From Pseudomonas sp. (lineage in GTDB: Bacteria; Pseudomonadota; Gammaproteobacteria; Pseudomonadales; Pseudomonadaceae), in NCBI GenBank assembly GCA_003488145.1, contig DNMQ01000433.1, positions 1 to 11,169 of the forward strand: DNA of 11,169 nucleotides, given 5' to 3'. The notes below the pieces were generated by a model that did no database searches, was not told the DNA's origin, and saw only the letters and a program-made list of their open reading frames with translations. Below, piece after piece: positions 1 through 11,169 of the stretch. Each line of letters begins with the position of its first letter. The first letter of the stretch is position 1. The translations under genes and the position numbers were made by a program.

Positions 1-6
1 GTTAGG

Positions 7-22
7 AGCAACAGCTGTGCCA
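7..22 (-). promoter_or_regulatory. Sigma-54 (-24/-12) promoter pointing out of the window
   Basis: Read on the minus strand this is TGGCACAGCTGTTGCT, matching the RpoN consensus TGGCACG-N4-TTGCW except at one flexible position. The invariant GG (21-20) and GC (9-8) are separated by exactly 10 bases. The expected transcription start lies a few bases beyond the left edge, so the regulated gene is not in the window. Position after fliK and known Pseudomonas gene order suggest the fliL-fliM-fliN operon, which is inference. Activation would need an enhancer-binding protein such as FleQ or FleR. Confidence 0.85.
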
Positions 23-147
23 ACGTCAATGCACGCCGGTACGGCGCAGCCTCGGGATCCAGGCAGTGCGCTCACAAGGTATCAGGAAAAGGATGGAGAT
101 AACGCCTGGATAGGCGACGCGAAAGCGATTGCAGCGACGGGCGGCGG

Positions 148-179
148 AAAACCGACGCGCACCTGAACGGCGGCGCCGG
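148..179 (-). terminator. Candidate Rho-independent terminator after fliK
   Basis: On the minus strand, about 20 bases after the fliK stop, a 7-bp stem can form: CCG plus GCGC pairing with GCGC plus CGG, with a 2-base bulge (155-156) and a 12-base loop (161-172). TTTT follows directly (151-148). The U-run is short, so termination may be partial. Its place between fliK and the outward sigma-54 promoter supports it. No folding energy was computed. Confidence 0.4.
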
Positions 180-201
180 ATTATCCCTCAAAGCGGATGG
201 C

Positions 202-1440
202 TCAGGCGTAGTAGTCGACGAGTCCGCGGTCACCGGCGGTACGACTGGAGGCGATTTCCGTCACGCCGAGCTCCACCTCATCGCCTGCCAGGTCGCCCTC
301 ACCCGACGCTCCACCCCGCGAGGAGCCACCATCGGCTCCGCCTTGCCAGCCACGCGCCAGCGACTGATCGGATACGTTCACGTCCATCAGGTTCATGCCT
401 TGCTGGGTGAACATTTCCCTTAGTCGCTGCATCTGCCCTTCCAGCGCGTCGCGCACTCCCGCATGCGGGCTGAGGAAGGTCACCTGCGCCTGATCCTTGG
501 TCAGGTCGATACGCACTTCCATACGACCGAGTTCAGCCGGATCGAGTTGGATTTCCGCCGACTTGAGATTCTGGCTGGACAGCCACATCACGCGGTCGAC
601 GACCGCCTCGCTCCAGCCGGACTGCTGCATCTGTACAGGTTGACCCGGCACCAGTTGCGGACGCTGCGATTGCTGCACCTGCTGAGCGATGGCCTGGCTC
701 AAGGGGTTGAGGCGTCCCGCAGCCAGTTCGCTGGCGCTGGCACGACTCTCCTTTGGCGCCTCCACGCTTTCCAGCAGGTCCTTGGTCAGCAATTCCACAT
801 CGAGCTCTTCGCCCTCACCCGCGTCCTGACTCGCCAGCAACGCGCTGGCAAAGCCATCGTCAGCCGAGGCCTTCGCCTGCGCATCGGTCAGCGGGTTCTG
901 CAATTGCTGCTGGGCCGTCTTCTGCATAGCTGCCGGGGTTTCGGTCAGCGTACGCATGCCGGCCAGTGTTGCTTCGTCCGCATCGACGGCCTCATCGCCG
1001 GCGATGCCGGCAGCGGCCGTCGGCAGCCCCGGAAGCAGGGAGACAGCATCGACCTCGGTTTCAGGCTGGGCTTCGGACTCCGCCACGAACTGCGTGCCAA
1101 GACCAAGCAGCAGCATTGGATCGAGCTCCGCCTCCGGAATGTCCTCAGCCGGCGTTTCGGGAGGCAAGGTATTGCCGCTTTCGGCAACCGCCGGCTTCTC
1201 GTCGGTGGTCGCCTCCGCCGTTTCCTGCTCGCGCTTGTCCTCGACCGGCTTGTCGCGGCTGGCCTCGTTGCGCACCGGGCGCTCGGCTGGTTTCGTCTGA
1301 CGCTCCTTGGCGTAGACATCGGAGAAGCTGGCGCTGCCGCTGTCTCGCCCTTCGCGCGGTGCTTCTGGCGCTTTGGCCGCCGCTTTGGGACGTGCGTCGA
1401 CGGATGGGGATCTAAGCAACAGGTCGGGGGAAACAGCCAT
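202..1440 (-). CDS. fliK: Flagellar hook-length control protein FliK
   Basis: 412 residues, close to the usual Pseudomonas FliK size. FliK is a secreted molecular ruler: it measures the growing hook and, through its C-terminal domain acting on FlhB, switches the export gate from rod/hook to filament substrates. The C-terminal Flg_hook domain is clear at about residues 275-365, with the hallmark LDPAELGRMEVRI (299-311) followed by a hydrophobic VTFLSPHAGVR stretch. Residues 1-270 are low-complexity and rich in Ala, Glu, Asp and Gln, as expected for the poorly conserved ruler part. The tail after residue 366 is Gly/Ser-rich. The ATG at 1440 is chosen because MAVSPDLLLR resembles other Pseudomonas FliK starts; the ribosome site is weak (CGGAA, about 8 bases upstream). 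It has its own sigma-54 promoter and is flanked by candidate terminators, so it is probably a monocistronic unit. The family is certain; the exact start slightly less so. Confidence 0.95.
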   Translation of the reverse strand: MAVSPDLLLRSPSVDARPKAAAKAPEAPREGRDSGSASFSDVYAKERQTKPAERPVRNEASRDKPVEDKREQETAEATTDEKPAVAESGNTLPPETPAEDIPEAELDPMLLLGLGTQFVAESEAQPETEVDAVSLLPGLPTAAAGIAGDEAVDADEATLAGMRTLTETPAAMQKTAQQQLQNPLTDAQAKASADDGFASALLASQDAGEGEELDVELLTKDLLESVEAPKESRASASELAAGRLNPLSQAIAQQVQQSQRPQLVPGQPVQMQQSGWSEAVVDRVMWLSSQNLKSAEIQLDPAELGRMEVRIDLTKDQAQVTFLSPHAGVRDALEGQMQRLREMFTQQGMNLMDVNVSDQSLARGWQGGADGGSSRGGASGEGDLAGDEVELGVTEIASSRTAGDRGLVDYYA

Positions 1441-6821: not shown

Positions 6822-7838
6822 TTAGATCATCTCTTCGCCGCCCTTGGAGCCCAGGACGATTTCACCGGCCTCGGCCATGCGGCGAGCAATGGTAAGGATT
6901 TCCTTCTGCGCATTCTCGACATCGCTGACACGCACCGGGCCCTTGGCCTCCAGGTCGTCACGCAGCAGCTCGCCGGCGCGCTTGGACATGTTCTTGAAGA
7001 CCTTTTCCTTGATGCCGTCGTCGGCGCCCTTGAGCGCCATCACCAGCACGTCGGAGGATACCTCACGCAGCAGCACCTGAATGCCGCGGTCGTCGACTTC
7101 GGCGAGGTTGTCGAAGACGAACATCAGGTCTTCGATCTGGCTCGACAGGTCCTCGTCCACATCGCGGATGGCATCCATCAGCTGGCCTTCGATGGAACTG
7201 TCCAGGTAGTTCATGATGTCCGCCGCGCGCTTTACGCCGCCCAGGCTGGCGCGGCTGGTGTTGGTGCTGCCGGAGAACTGCTTTTCCAGGATCAGGTTCA
7301 GCTCTTTCAGCGCAGCCGGCTGCACGGTGTTGAGCGAGGACACGCGCAGGACGATGTCCAGGCGCACCTTGTGGTCGAAATGCGAGAGCACTTCGCCAGC
7401 CTGGTCCGGGTCGAGATAGGCCACCACGATGGCCTGGATCTGCGGGTGCTCGTAGCGGATCACATCGGCCACCGCACGCGGCTCCATCCACTTCAGGCTG
7501 TCCAGACCGCTGGTGTTGCCGCCCAGCAGGATGCGGTCGATCAGGCCGCCGGCCTTGTCCTCGCCGAGCGCCTGAGTAAGCATCTTGCGGATGTAACCGT
7601 CGGAGCCGACGCCGAGGCTGGTCTGGTCGCCGACGATCTCGACGAACTCGCTCATTACCTGTTCGATCTGTGCCTTCTGCACGTTGCGCATCTGCGCCAT
7701 GGCAGTACCGACGCGCTGCACCTCTTTCGGACCGAGGTGACGCAGGACCTGCGCAGCGTCGGTTTCACCCAGCGAGAGCAACAGGATGGCGGCCTTGTCG
7801 ACCTTGTTGAGCTTGGCTTGAACTCGATTGTCATTCAT
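6822..7838 (-). CDS. fliG: Flagellar motor switch protein FliG
   Basis: 338 residues, typical length. FliG forms the upper C-ring: its N-domain binds FliF, its middle domain binds FliM, and its C-domain carries the charges that meet the stator. The EHPQ motif is at 130-133 within RYEHPQIQAIVVAYL, the flexible linker includes G200-G201, and MFVF is at 239-242. The C-terminal torque helix has the charged pattern K286-R287, R293, D294-D295 and R303. No substitutions are apparent at these positions. The ATG at 7838 overlaps the fliF stop by 8 bases, a usual coupling arrangement. Confidence 0.97.
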   Translation of the reverse strand: MNDNRVQAKLNKVDKAAILLLSLGETDAAQVLRHLGPKEVQRVGTAMAQMRNVQKAQIEQVMSEFVEIVGDQTSLGVGSDGYIRKMLTQALGEDKAGGLIDRILLGGNTSGLDSLKWMEPRAVADVIRYEHPQIQAIVVAYLDPDQAGEVLSHFDHKVRLDIVLRVSSLNTVQPAALKELNLILEKQFSGSTNTSRASLGGVKRAADIMNYLDSSIEGQLMDAIRDVDEDLSSQIEDLMFVFDNLAEVDDRGIQVLLREVSSDVLVMALKGADDGIKEKVFKNMSKRAGELLRDDLEAKGPVRVSDVENAQKEILTIARRMAEAGEIVLGSKGGEEMI

Positions 7839-9612
7839 CGGCGTTGATCCACTCTTTCACCACCTGGGCTACCCGTCCGGGGTCATCGGCCACCAGGTTC
7901 TTGATCGCGTTCAGCTGGGCTTCATATCCCTCGCTGGGGCTCGGCAACAGAATGTTCTGCGGGCCGCTCAGGCTGACCCGGTCACTGGCCAGGCCGGAGT
8001 CCAGTCCATCATCGTCACCCAGTTCGCCCGGACCGCTGGCAACCTGCAGTTCCTTGCCGCTGGACGGATTGGTGAGGCTCTTGAGCACCGGACGCAGCAC
8101 ACCGAACACCAGCACCAGGATGAACAGCACGCCGAGGACCTGCTTGACCACATCCCAGAACCACGGTTGCGAGTAGAACGGTATCTCTTCGAAGGTCTCA
8201 CCGGCGCTGTCGGCGACGAACGCGGTGTTGATCACGCTGACGCTATCGCCGCGGCTGGCATCGAAACCCACCGCGTCTTGCACCAGGCGAGTGAAGCGCG
8301 CCAGATCATCGGCGTTCCACGGTACGCGAACCATCTCGCCGGCCGCATTGAGCGTCATCTGATCGTCGACCACTACTGCCACCGAGAGCCGGCGCAGGCG
8401 ACCCTGCTGCTGCTTGGTATAGCTGATCGAGCGATCGAGTTCGTAGTTGCGCGTAGCCTGCTCGCGCTTGTCGGCCGGATAAGGCGCGAGCATCGGCTGA
8501 CCGGTCACTGGATCCATGACCTGCTGACCATTGGCATCGAGCAGAGGCTGACCAGGAGCCACGGCACCCGCGGCGGCTGCGGCCTGATTGGCCTGCTCGG
8601 GCGCGGTCGCCGGGCCAGGAGGCTGATTGCTCAGGGCCCCCGGCACGCCTTGCGGCGGCAGGCTGCTCTGGCGCTGCTCATTGACGCTCTGTTCGCTGCG
8701 CAACGCCGGCTGATCGGGGTTGAAGGTTTCCGAGGTGGATTCGACGGCGCTGAAATCCACGTCCGCGGAGACTTCGGCCTTATAGCGGCCGCTGCCCAGC
8801 ACTGGCTGCAGAATGTTGTGCACGCGCTGGGTGTAGAGACCTTCCATGCGGCGGCTGTAGTCGAACTGCTTGCCGGCCATGCTCAGCTCGGTCAGTTCCT
8901 GCTGATCGGACAGCAGGTTGCCCTTCTGGTCCACCACGGTGATCTGCGATTTGCCCAGTTCCGGCACGCTGGTGGCGACCAGGTTGATGATCGCCATCAC
9001 CTGGCTCGGTTCCAGCGCGCGGCCCGGGTAAAGCTCCACCAGTACCGAGGCACTGGGCTTGCGCTCGTCGCGAATGAACACCGAGCTCTTCGGGATCGCT
9101 AGGTGCACACGGGCGCCCTTGACGTTGTTCAGGCTGGAAATGGTGCGGCCCAGTTCGCCCTCGAGACCACGGCGATAACGGGTCGCCTCCATGAACTGGC
9201 TGGTACCCAGCCCCTGTTCCTTGTCGAGGATTTCGAAGCCGATGTTGCTGTCGGCCGGCGCGATACCCGCACCGGCGAGCTTGAGACGTGCGCGAGCAAG
9301 ATCATCCGCCTTGACCAGCAGGGCGCCGGAGTTCGGTTCGACGGTATAGGCGATATCCGCAGCGGCGAGGGTTTCCATCACCTGATTGGCATCCATCCCC
9401 GCCAGGCTGCCGAGCAGCGGACGATAATCGGGCTGCTGCGACCAGAGCACCACGGCAAAACCGATCGCCACGCTGGCCGCCAGCCCGACCAACAGGCCGA
9501 CCTGCCGCAGCATGGACATATCCGAAAGGTTTTCCAGAAAGGACAAGCCCAGCAGGGGCTTCTTGACACCCTCGGGAGTAGCCGGCACCGGAACGTTCAC
9601 CGCTTCAGCCAT
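7831..9612 (-). CDS. fliF: Flagellar MS-ring protein FliF
   Basis: 593 residues. FliF oligomerises in the inner membrane into the MS ring, the first flagellar structure and the mount for FliG. Two membrane segments are visible: about 39-58 (VGLLVGLAASVAIGFAVVLW) and about 486-509. Between them are the periplasmic ring-building motifs (YscJ/FliF type, about 60-220) and a Pro/Ala/Gln-rich linker (about 318-386) that includes a GQPLL...GQPML near-repeat. The cytoplasmic C-terminus (about 555-593) ends in the FliG-binding helices VADDPGRVAQVVKEWIN. The ATG at 9612 lies 13 bases after the fliE stop with a weak GGCGGA upstream. The 3' end overlaps fliG by 8 bases. Confidence 0.97.
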   Translation of the reverse strand: MAEAVNVPVPATPEGVKKPLLGLSFLENLSDMSMLRQVGLLVGLAASVAIGFAVVLWSQQPDYRPLLGSLAGMDANQVMETLAAADIAYTVEPNSGALLVKADDLARARLKLAGAGIAPADSNIGFEILDKEQGLGTSQFMEATRYRRGLEGELGRTISSLNNVKGARVHLAIPKSSVFIRDERKPSASVLVELYPGRALEPSQVMAIINLVATSVPELGKSQITVVDQKGNLLSDQQELTELSMAGKQFDYSRRMEGLYTQRVHNILQPVLGSGRYKAEVSADVDFSAVESTSETFNPDQPALRSEQSVNEQRQSSLPPQGVPGALSNQPPGPATAPEQANQAAAAAGAVAPGQPLLDANGQQVMDPVTGQPMLAPYPADKREQATRNYELDRSISYTKQQQGRLRRLSVAVVVDDQMTLNAAGEMVRVPWNADDLARFTRLVQDAVGFDASRGDSVSVINTAFVADSAGETFEEIPFYSQPWFWDVVKQVLGVLFILVLVFGVLRPVLKSLTNPSSGKELQVASGPGELGDDDGLDSGLASDRVSLSGPQNILLPSPSEGYEAQLNAIKNLVADDPGRVAQVVKEWINADE

Positions 9613-9625
9613 GATTCAATCCGCC

Positions 9626-9956
9626 TCACACCGGCATCTGCATGATGTCTTGATAAGCCTGAACCAGTTTGTTGCGCACCTGGGTCATGGCCTGAAAGGA
9701 AACGCTGGCCTTCTGGGAGGCGATCATCACTTCGGTCAGGTCGACACCGCCCTGCCCCATCTCGAAGGCAGATGACAGCTGGCTCGAAACCTGCTGGGTT
9801 TCGTGCACTTTATTCACCGCCTGGCCAAGCATGTCGGAGAAGCTCGGAGCGCCGACCTCCTGGGTCTTGACCTCCGGCTTGGCGCGCGCCATTGCATCGG
9901 TCTGCATGGCCCGCATTTCCAGCATCAAGCGATTGAATTGGACACCCCTGACTCAT
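9626..9956 (-). CDS. fliE: Flagellar hook-basal body protein FliE, with an apparent +1 frameshift near the start
   Basis: FliE joins the MS ring to the proximal rod and is exported early. Residues such as [20 protein letters not shown] and the ending [11 protein letters not shown] are diagnostic of the family. The natural start is ATG 9956, with GGAGGA (9966-9961) 4 bases upstream. It codes MSQG, but a run of four G (9948-9945 on the minus strand) puts the rest out of frame. Removing one G gives [18 protein letters not shown] and a normal 109-residue FliE. As written, translation from ATG 9956 would stop after 48 codons (TAA at 9812-9810). The uninterrupted FliE frame spans 9626-9928 from a TTG, or 9925 from an ATG. 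Neither has a ribosome site, and either start would lose the first 9 or 10 residues. This is either a sequencing/assembly error or a real mutation. It is the first gene of the fliE-J operon, behind a sigma-54 promoter. Confidence 0.9.
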
Positions 9957-9960
9957 CTAA

Positions 9961-9966
9961 TCCTCC
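9961..9966 (-). promoter_or_regulatory. Strong Shine-Dalgarno of fliE
   Basis: Minus-strand GGAGGA followed by TTAG and ATG (9956-9954). It is the strongest ribosome site in the window and marks ATG 9956 as the intended fliE start, which exposes the frameshift just downstream. Confidence 0.85.
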
Positions 9967-10201: not shown

Positions 10202-11169
10202 ATGAACGAAATCAGCCGTACCGCCCTGCGCCCCCTTACTGATAGCTCGCCTTCGACCGTCGTCGCCGGCTTCATCGCCATGCTCACCGGCTATACCAGC
10301 TCGCTGGTGCTGATGTTCCAGGCCGGCCAGGCAGCAGGCCTGAGCACGGCGCAGATCTCTTCGTGGATCTGGGCACTGTCGATCGGCATGGCGATCTGCA
10401 GCATCGGCCTGTCGCTGCGCTATCGCACGCCGGTGGTGGTTGCCTGGTCGACGCCCGGCGCGGCCCTGTTGATCACCAGTCTGCCCGGCGTGCCGTACGC
10501 CGAAGCCATCGGCGCCTTCATCTTCGCCTCGGCGCTGATCGCCCTGTGCGGCCTGACTGGAAGCTTCGATCGGCTGATGCGGCGAGTACCGGCATCGCTG
10601 GCTGCCGCGCTGCTGGCGGGCGTGCTGTTCAATATCGGAAGCGAGATTTTCCGTGCCGTCGAGGTTCAGCCGGTGCTGGTGCTCGGCATGTTCTTCAGCT
10701 ACCTGCTGGCCAAGCGAATGCAGCCCCGCTACGCCGTGCTCGCTGCGCTGCTGGTCGGCTGCCTGATCGCCGGTATTTCCGGCCTGCTGGACTTCCAGCG
10801 CTTCAGCCTGCAGGTCGCGGTGCCGGTGTGGACTACACCGGCGTTTTCCCTCGCGGCGATCTTCAGTATCGGCATCCCGCTGTTCGTCATCGCCATGGCT
10901 TCGCAGAACATGCCAGGCCTGGCCGTGCTGCGTGCCGAGGGATATCAGGTGCCGGCTTCGCCACTGATCTCGACAACGGGCATCGCCTCGGTGCTGCTAG
11001 CCCCATCCGGCTCCCACGGCATCCATCTGGCGGCGATCACCATGGCGATCTGCGCCGGCCCGGAGGCGCACCCCGACCCAGGCAAACGCTACACCGCAGC
11101 AGCCTGGTGCGGCGTGTTCTACGGCATCGCCGGTATCTTCGGTGCGACGCTGGCGGCGCTGTTCGCGGC
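10202..11169 (+). CDS. benE: BenE-family benzoate/H+ symporter-like transporter, 3' end beyond the window
   Basis: 322 codons are visible and the frame stays open to the window end. The family is about 380-400 residues, so the last fifth or so is missing. It is an inner-membrane protein with many hydrophobic segments, for example VVAGFIAMLTGYTSSLVLMF near residues 20-39 and later ALLAGVLFNIGSEIF. BenE hallmarks are VVAWSTPGAALL, a PSGSHGIHLAAIT segment, and AICAGPEAHPDPGKRY close to the visible end. Characterised members import benzoate with protons; E. coli YdcO belongs to the same family with no firm substrate. No benzoate-catabolic gene is in view, so the substrate is open and the symbol denotes family only. 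ATG 10202 gives a normal family N-terminus (MNEISRTALRPLTD), though no good ribosome site precedes it. Base composition matches its neighbours, with no sign of recent transfer. It is divergent from fliE. Confidence 0.88.
   Translation, partial: MNEISRTALRPLTDSSPSTVVAGFIAMLTGYTSSLVLMFQAGQAAGLSTAQISSWIWALSIGMAICSIGLSLRYRTPVVVAWSTPGAALLITSLPGVPYAEAIGAFIFASALIALCGLTGSFDRLMRRVPASLAAALLAGVLFNIGSEIFRAVEVQPVLVLGMFFSYLLAKRMQPRYAVLAALLVGCLIAGISGLLDFQRFSLQVAVPVWTTPAFSLAAIFSIGIPLFVIAMASQNMPGLAVLRAEGYQVPASPLISTTGIASVLLAPSGSHGIHLAAITMAICAGPEAHPDPGKRYTAAAWCGVFYGIAGIFGATLAALFA

What the first reader, a model, noticed from the sequence alone, without database searches (positions are those of the whole stretch)
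9942..9956. fliE disrupted by one extra G right after its start codon
ATG 9956 has a near-ideal Shine-Dalgarno and codes MSQG, the family N-terminus. A four-G run (9948-9945) then shifts the frame away from [11 protein letters not shown], which continues as intact FliE. With three Gs the protein is a normal 109 residues. As written, ATG 9956 yields a 48-residue unrelated peptide. FliE is essential for flagellar assembly, so a true mutation would predict a non-motile strain unless a weak TTG/ATG start rescues a shortened protein. The alternative is an assembly error in a homopolymer. Slippage at such a short G run as a phase switch is possible but speculative.
Basis: partly seen in the sequence, partly recalled or inferred. 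Interest (0 to 1): 0.7.

Follow-up and report, generated by a model that had tools for sequence, protein, structure and literature searches.

The report
Broken fliE start, probably assembly artefact
In this draft bacterial genome the gene for a protein at the base of the flagellum loses its reading frame just after its start codon, but the break is seen only in this record and the same contig carries sequence of two species joined together, so it is more likely an assembly flaw than a real mutation.

Summary
fliE (minus strand, start codon 9956) loses its frame in the G run 9945-9948: ATG 9956 gives 48 unrelated residues, while the FliE frame stays open from just downstream to 9626. The record is a Stutzerimonas draft (514 contigs, 73.5% complete; the window is all of contig C199). 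The change is private: 109 of 109 related loci read are intact; the intact start pattern occurs in 292 of 398 family genomes, the altered one in 1 of 398, this genome. It lies in a cluster of three private differences (9941, 9945, 9966) that holds the only two private indels of the contig before 10960. The contig is an interspecies mosaic: it follows one species group to about 10973, then another Stutzerimonas at 224 of 225 bases. Contig C40 ends the same way. Best explanation: local assembly or consensus artefact in a mixed bin (0.58). Main rival: a genuine private frameshift (0.36). Nothing supports phase variation or recoding. If genuine, polar flagella should fail, though the bin also holds an intact lateral flagellar cluster. 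Low interest.

The parts
9626..9928 (-). FliE frame from the first standard start codon (TTG 9928) to its stop: 100 residues, intact FliE body
9810..9956 (-). Frame read from the family start codon ATG 9956: 48 unrelated residues
9945..9948 (-). G run in which the frame changes; one base longer than in the relatives aligned
9961..9966 (-). Shine-Dalgarno GGAGGA of fliE
   Evidence: -9.3 kcal/mol with the anti-Shine-Dalgarno
9941..9966 (.). Cluster of three differences private to the window against seven close genomes: substitution 9941, indel 9945, opposite-sign indel 9966
10943..10973 (.). 31-base stretch shared by both parents, in which the contig switches from the kunmingensis/chloritidismutans group to the species of G029
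10974..11169 (.). Contig tail that follows G029 (one difference, at 11007) and differs from the seven close genomes by about 15%
10202..11167 (+). Divergent benE-family transporter gene, running off the contig; the junction lies inside it
7831..9612 (-). fliF, next gene downstream of fliE, intact
1..588 (.). Overlap at 100% identity with the end of contig C154, left unmerged in the assembly

Best explanation
The frame break is most likely a local assembly or consensus artefact in a draft assembly built from a mixture of related Stutzerimonas. Near the fliE start, alleles that differ by one base just upstream of the Shine-Dalgarno appear to have been merged inexactly: the contig is one base shorter there and one base longer inside codon 4, so its length is unchanged but the start codon and the body of fliE are out of step. 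The sampled organism would then carry an ordinary intact fliE. Shown: the break, its uniqueness, the opposite-sign indel pair, and interspecies junctions in this contig and in C40. Inferred: that merging of the same kind made the break in fliE.
For: Private in every comparison made: 109 of 109 related loci intact, altered pattern in 1 of 398 family genomes, the own one, intact pattern in 292 of 398. The only two private indels among 33 private differences before 10960 lie 21 bases apart with opposite sign; random placement does that in 0.38% of trials, and with a substitution in the same 26 bases in 0.04%. The contig switches species at 10943-10973; C40 switches to the same second species for its last 804 bases inside 29 shared bases. 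Of 27 contig ends that could be aligned (14 contigs), 4 fall to 68.8-83.5% identity against 96.6-98.4% in their bodies. C310 has an NN join whose two sides repeat the same 17 bases in two allelic versions. Published benchmark: 22.15 chimeric contigs per genome with megahit and 2.63 with SPAdes (PMC11261854, passages).
Against: No reads are held. The fliE start does not match the second species found in the contig tail, G029, so the break is not a switch to that species. The upstream indel state (4 of 109 loci) and the 9941 state (many loci) exist in nature, so a short natural recombination tract could explain two of the three differences. Any three of 33 differences falling within 26 bases is not rare by chance (7.8%), and these tests are post hoc. 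Coding frame breaks elsewhere in the record are few: three including fliE in about 143 kb compared with one or more relatives, a rate that ordinary pseudogenes could give. The merge step is not demonstrated.
Confidence: 0.58

Rival explanations
1. A genuine private frameshift in the sampled lineage. fliE is a pseudogene or a recent loss-of-function allele, the rod cannot start, and polar flagella are not made; the early stop may also reduce expression of the genes downstream.
For: The remainder of the contig around fliE is well formed and every other gene of the window is open. Natural indel pseudogenes are common: in one Xanthomonas strain 81 of 137 putative pseudogenes came from short indels (PMC3826837, passages), and natural non-motile Salmonella Dublin isolates carry an in-frame fliE deletion (PMC8546590, passages). 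Two other coding frame breaks were met in about 143 kb of the record, so isolated frame breaks are not rare in it. An intact lateral flagellar cluster in the bin could relax selection.
Against: Private against 397 family genomes by pattern and 109 of 109 loci read. It coincides with a second private indel and lies in a contig with a proven species switch.
Confidence: 0.36
2. The gene works as it stands: a shortened FliE is made from TTG 9928 or ATG 9925.
For: Among the 120 listed of 1672 FliE relatives, two are recorded with 99 residues starting at the methionine equivalent to ATG 9925 and one with 93, so short starts are at least annotated; whether they are real is unknown.
Against: Weak start signals (-2.8 and +1.5 against -9.3 kcal/mol). 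Ribosomes from ATG 9956 would read through both starts in another frame. [quoted passage not shown]
Confidence: 0.04
3. Phase variation by slippage in the G run, or programmed frameshifting near codons 3 to 5, switches FliE on and off.
For: Only that a short G run lies at the break.
Against: The run is four bases; 33 runs of four and 6 of five G or C occur in the window. Many relatives have CAAGGT there, so run length is not conserved. The altered pattern occurs in 1 of 398 genomes.
Confidence: 0.02

Closest known systems
Chimeric contigs of metagenome or mixed-culture assemblies
   Same: Switch between two close species inside a short identical stretch (31 and 29 bases), at contig ends, with scaffold joins that repeat their flanks
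   Different: The fliE break itself is a one-base problem about 1 kb from the junction and does not match the second species; the link is inferred
Natural flagellar pseudogenes (Xanthomonas strains; Salmonella Dublin fliE deletion)
   Same: A single event that removes a flagellar gene product
   Different: Those were found in isolates, several Xanthomonas frameshifts being confirmed by Sanger sequencing (PMC3826837, passages); here there is no isolate and no reads, and the context is mosaic
FliE of Pseudomonadaceae
   Same: The frame from 9928 to 9626 is FliE; solved relatives are 8z5s (E 5.2e-21) and 7bin (E 1.2e-12)
   Different: The first nine residues are out of frame with the start codon in this record

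Membership tests
FliE (PF02049 / TIGR00205) | Profile match over the curated cut-off | tested here: met
   108 bits against 22.4; 104.3 bits against 30
FliE (PF02049 / TIGR00205) | Start codon in frame with the body (MSQG N-terminus of this family's Pseudomonadaceae members) | tested here: not met
   ATG 9956 is in another frame; in frame in 109 of 109 related loci
Chimeric contig | Parts of one contig match different species at near identity | tested here: met
   98% to the close group up to about 10973, then 224 of 225 bases to G029, next best 89%
Chimeric contig | Same fault elsewhere in the assembly | tested here: met
   C40: last 804 bases follow G029 (12 differences)
Chimeric contig | The fliE frame break itself lies at a switch between two identified parents | tested here: inconclusive
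   Three private differences in 26 bases, two of them states found in other species; no single donor sequence has all three
Chimeric contig | Change in read support at the fault | not testable with these tools
   No reads are held
Natural pseudogene | Change present in the organism's DNA | not testable with these tools
   Needs reads, isolate or PCR
Natural pseudogene | Further decay of the gene or of neighbouring flagellar genes | tested here: not met
   The FliE body differs from close relatives by about 1% and the other flagellar genes of the window are open
Slippage-type phase-variable gene | Run-length variation between related genomes | tested here: not met
   1 of 398 genomes with the altered pattern; many relatives interrupt the run

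The most novel reading that the evidence does not exclude
A natural Stutzerimonas lineage has just lost its polar flagellum through a private frameshift in fliE while keeping a complete lateral flagellar system: a change of motility mode caught early. This needs both the break to be real and contig C315 to belong to the same organism.
Probability: 0.08. Interest if true: 0.4.

Novelty: not a real feature. Interest (0 to 1): 0.1.

Why it matters
Mainly as a caution: a fragmented draft with interspecies junctions can show a convincing 'essential gene broken' signal. Two cheap warning signs showed here: opposite-sign indels close together that no relative shares, and contig ends that switch species. 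If the break were real it would be one more natural motility-loss allele, of some interest because a second flagellar system is present in the bin.

Tried and rejected
my first pattern for the altered allele was mis-written (the own genome did not match it); its 0 of 398 is discarded and replaced, as denominator.

A generally indel-prone assembly was considered. Over 94,591 aligned bases of 12 contigs against G028, 23 indels not divisible by three fell in mechanically called ORFs. On reading the frames I judged by eye that most were pairs that cancel, spurious ORFs or intergenic, leaving fliE and the last residues of an ABC-transporter ATPase (L190:5931; LolD-like by recognition, no family search). 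While checking this report I found a third that I had first overlooked: at L138:3748 a 789-residue frame of G020 is split in the own genome; I could not test whether that is private. L141 and L138 also differ by many indels in diverged stretches, which I did not sort one by one.

A second copy of the polar fliE in the bin was sought and not found; the other FliE is the lateral paralogue on C315. The fliE start was compared with G029 and does not match it. The left side of the C310 join is only 85% like G029. The plasmid search found one record, a 79% match in P. aeruginosa. G019 (L112, 96.3%) and G047 (L120, 93.8%) were left out of the private-difference count, which used seven of the nine close genomes; both also differ from the window at 9941, 9945 and 9966. 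Paper searches: in the listings seen, no paper is titled or abstracted as a Stutzerimonas fliE frameshift; PMC2831843 passages did not bear on runs of four.

Full report
Setting. The window is the whole of contig C199 (11,169 bases) of a genome of 3.65 Mb in 514 contigs, 73.52% complete and 3.95% contaminated. The genus is Stutzerimonas by its nearest named relatives, S. chloritidismutans and S. kunmingensis (L033-L035). The minus strand carries fliE, fliF, fliG, fliH, fliI, fliJ, a STAS-domain protein, a response regulator with a SpoIIE-type phosphatase domain, an Hpt protein and a fliK-like gene; the plus strand carries a benE-family gene that runs off the end.

ATG 9956 has the strongest Shine-Dalgarno pairing of the starts tested, codes MSQG, and then runs in a frame that ends after 48 residues at 9810. 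The FliE frame is open to 9626, has a stop at 9955, and has no standard start before TTG 9928. The 100-residue frame is FliE by Pfam and NCBIfam; the 48-residue peptide has no relative in the searches made.

It is private. Of 56 genus genomes, this one included, 55 have a FliE match; the exception, G021, is 71% complete. I read the start region of 109 other fliE loci (29 from genus genomes, 80 from named genome contigs; some are the same genome twice): in 109 of 109 the same ATG is in frame and the protein begins MSQG[V/I]xFNR. A DNA pattern for the intact start occurs in 292 of 398 Pseudomonadaceae genomes, and in 52 of the 55 other genus genomes; the altered pattern occurs in 1 of 398, this genome. 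The other 105 genomes match neither pattern and say nothing.

The neighbourhood is odd. Against seven close genomes (97.7-98.4% identity; two more distant ones were left out of this count) the window has 33 private differences before 10,960, two of them indels. The two indels lie at 9945 and 9966 with opposite sign, and a private substitution lies at 9941. Random placement puts two indels that close in 0.38% of trials, and with a substitution within the same 26 bases in 0.04%; any three of 33 differences within 26 bases is unremarkable at 7.8%. These tests are post hoc. The upstream indel state is natural elsewhere (4 of 109 loci) and the 9941 state is a synonymous variant seen in many relatives, so a short recombination tract could supply two of the three changes.

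The contig is a mosaic. Up to about 10,973 it follows the close group; from 10,943 on it follows G029, another Stutzerimonas species, with 224 of 225 bases identical in the tail tested, the next best genome having 89%. The switch lies within 31 bases common to both. Contig C40 switches to G029 for its last 804 bases (12 differences), within 29 shared bases; its last 241 bases are 98% G029, next best 83%. In 14 contigs (C201 was left out of this test), one of 28 ends could not be aligned and 4 of the other 27 fall to 68.8-83.5% identity against 96.6-98.4% in the bodies of those contigs; only the ends of C199 and C40 were traced to a second species. Contig C310 has an NN join with the same 17 bases on both sides in two allelic versions; the other N runs did not show shared flanks. 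In 64 own-genome loci, window included, 6 read wholly N and the rest hold 21 internal N runs of 2 to 198 bases, 15 of them of exactly two. C154 overlaps the first 588 bases of the window at 100% and was left unmerged.

Frame breaks elsewhere. Over 94.6 kb aligned to G028, and three further regions compared with one to three relatives (about 143 kb in all), I judge three coding frame breaks to be real in the record: fliE, the last residues of an ABC-transporter ATPase in C175, and a 789-residue frame in C201 that is split relative to G020. The sorting was by eye. The rate does not by itself separate assembly errors from ordinary pseudogenes.

Mechanism. My best account is an inexact merge, in assembly or consensus, of alleles that differ by one base upstream of the Shine-Dalgarno: the contig keeps its length but the start codon and the body of fliE end up out of step. 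The break, its uniqueness and the mosaicism are shown; the merge at fliE is inferred. A true frameshift stays a serious rival (0.36), because the allelic states around it exist in nature and no reads are available.

If it were true. [quoted passage not shown] Salmonella FliE has a functional domain in its first 18 residues, and natural Dublin isolates with an internal fliE deletion are non-motile (PMC8546590, passages). A product from TTG 9928 would lack nine residues and has poor start signals. Polar swimming should fail. The bin also holds C315 (51 kb) with lateral flagellin LafA (383.4 bits, cut-off 365), FliI, FliF and an intact FliE over their cut-offs, and FlhA and FlhB just under theirs. 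A second FliE occurs in 27 of the 55 other genus genomes but not in same-species G019 and G020, and C315 is only about 76-91% identical, piece by piece, to the two genomes compared, so its ownership is uncertain.

Phase variation and recoding have no support: the run is four bases, many relatives interrupt it, and no other genome of 397 carries the altered pattern.

Verdict: a correct reading of the record with, most likely, an ordinary technical cause; low interest unless reads say otherwise.

Noticed in passing
window 10943-11169: The contig tail switches to another Stutzerimonas species (G029, 224 of 225 bases) inside the benE-family gene.
   Followed up: yes
L143 (own contig C40) 3707-4510: The last 804 bases follow the same second species, junction within 29 shared bases.
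   Followed up: yes
L146 (own contig C310) around 10530-10595: NN scaffold join with the same 17 bases on both sides in two allelic versions, inside a long ORF.
   Followed up: partly
own contig C315 (L130, L131, L124): 51-kb contig with a lateral flagellar system (LafA, FlhA, FlhB, FliI, FliF, intact 106-residue FliE); absent from same-species G019 and G020 by FliE search; may be a binned-in stranger.
   Followed up: partly
L190:5931 (own contig C175): Frame break in the last residues of an ABC-transporter ATPase (256 against 265 residues in G028).
   Followed up: partly
L138:3748 (own contig C201): A 789-residue frame of G020 is split by an indel in the own genome; whether private was not tested.
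   Followed up: partly
P0004, P0006 and P0015: FliE relatives recorded with 99, 99 and 93 residues, starting at later methionines; a gene-caller choice or similar frame breaks elsewhere.
   Followed up: no
window 1-588: 100% overlap with the end of contig C154, not merged by the assembler.
   Followed up: partly
L202 left end and L141 left end (own contigs C325 and C20): Two more contig ends fall to 80% identity with G028; donor species not sought.
   Followed up: no
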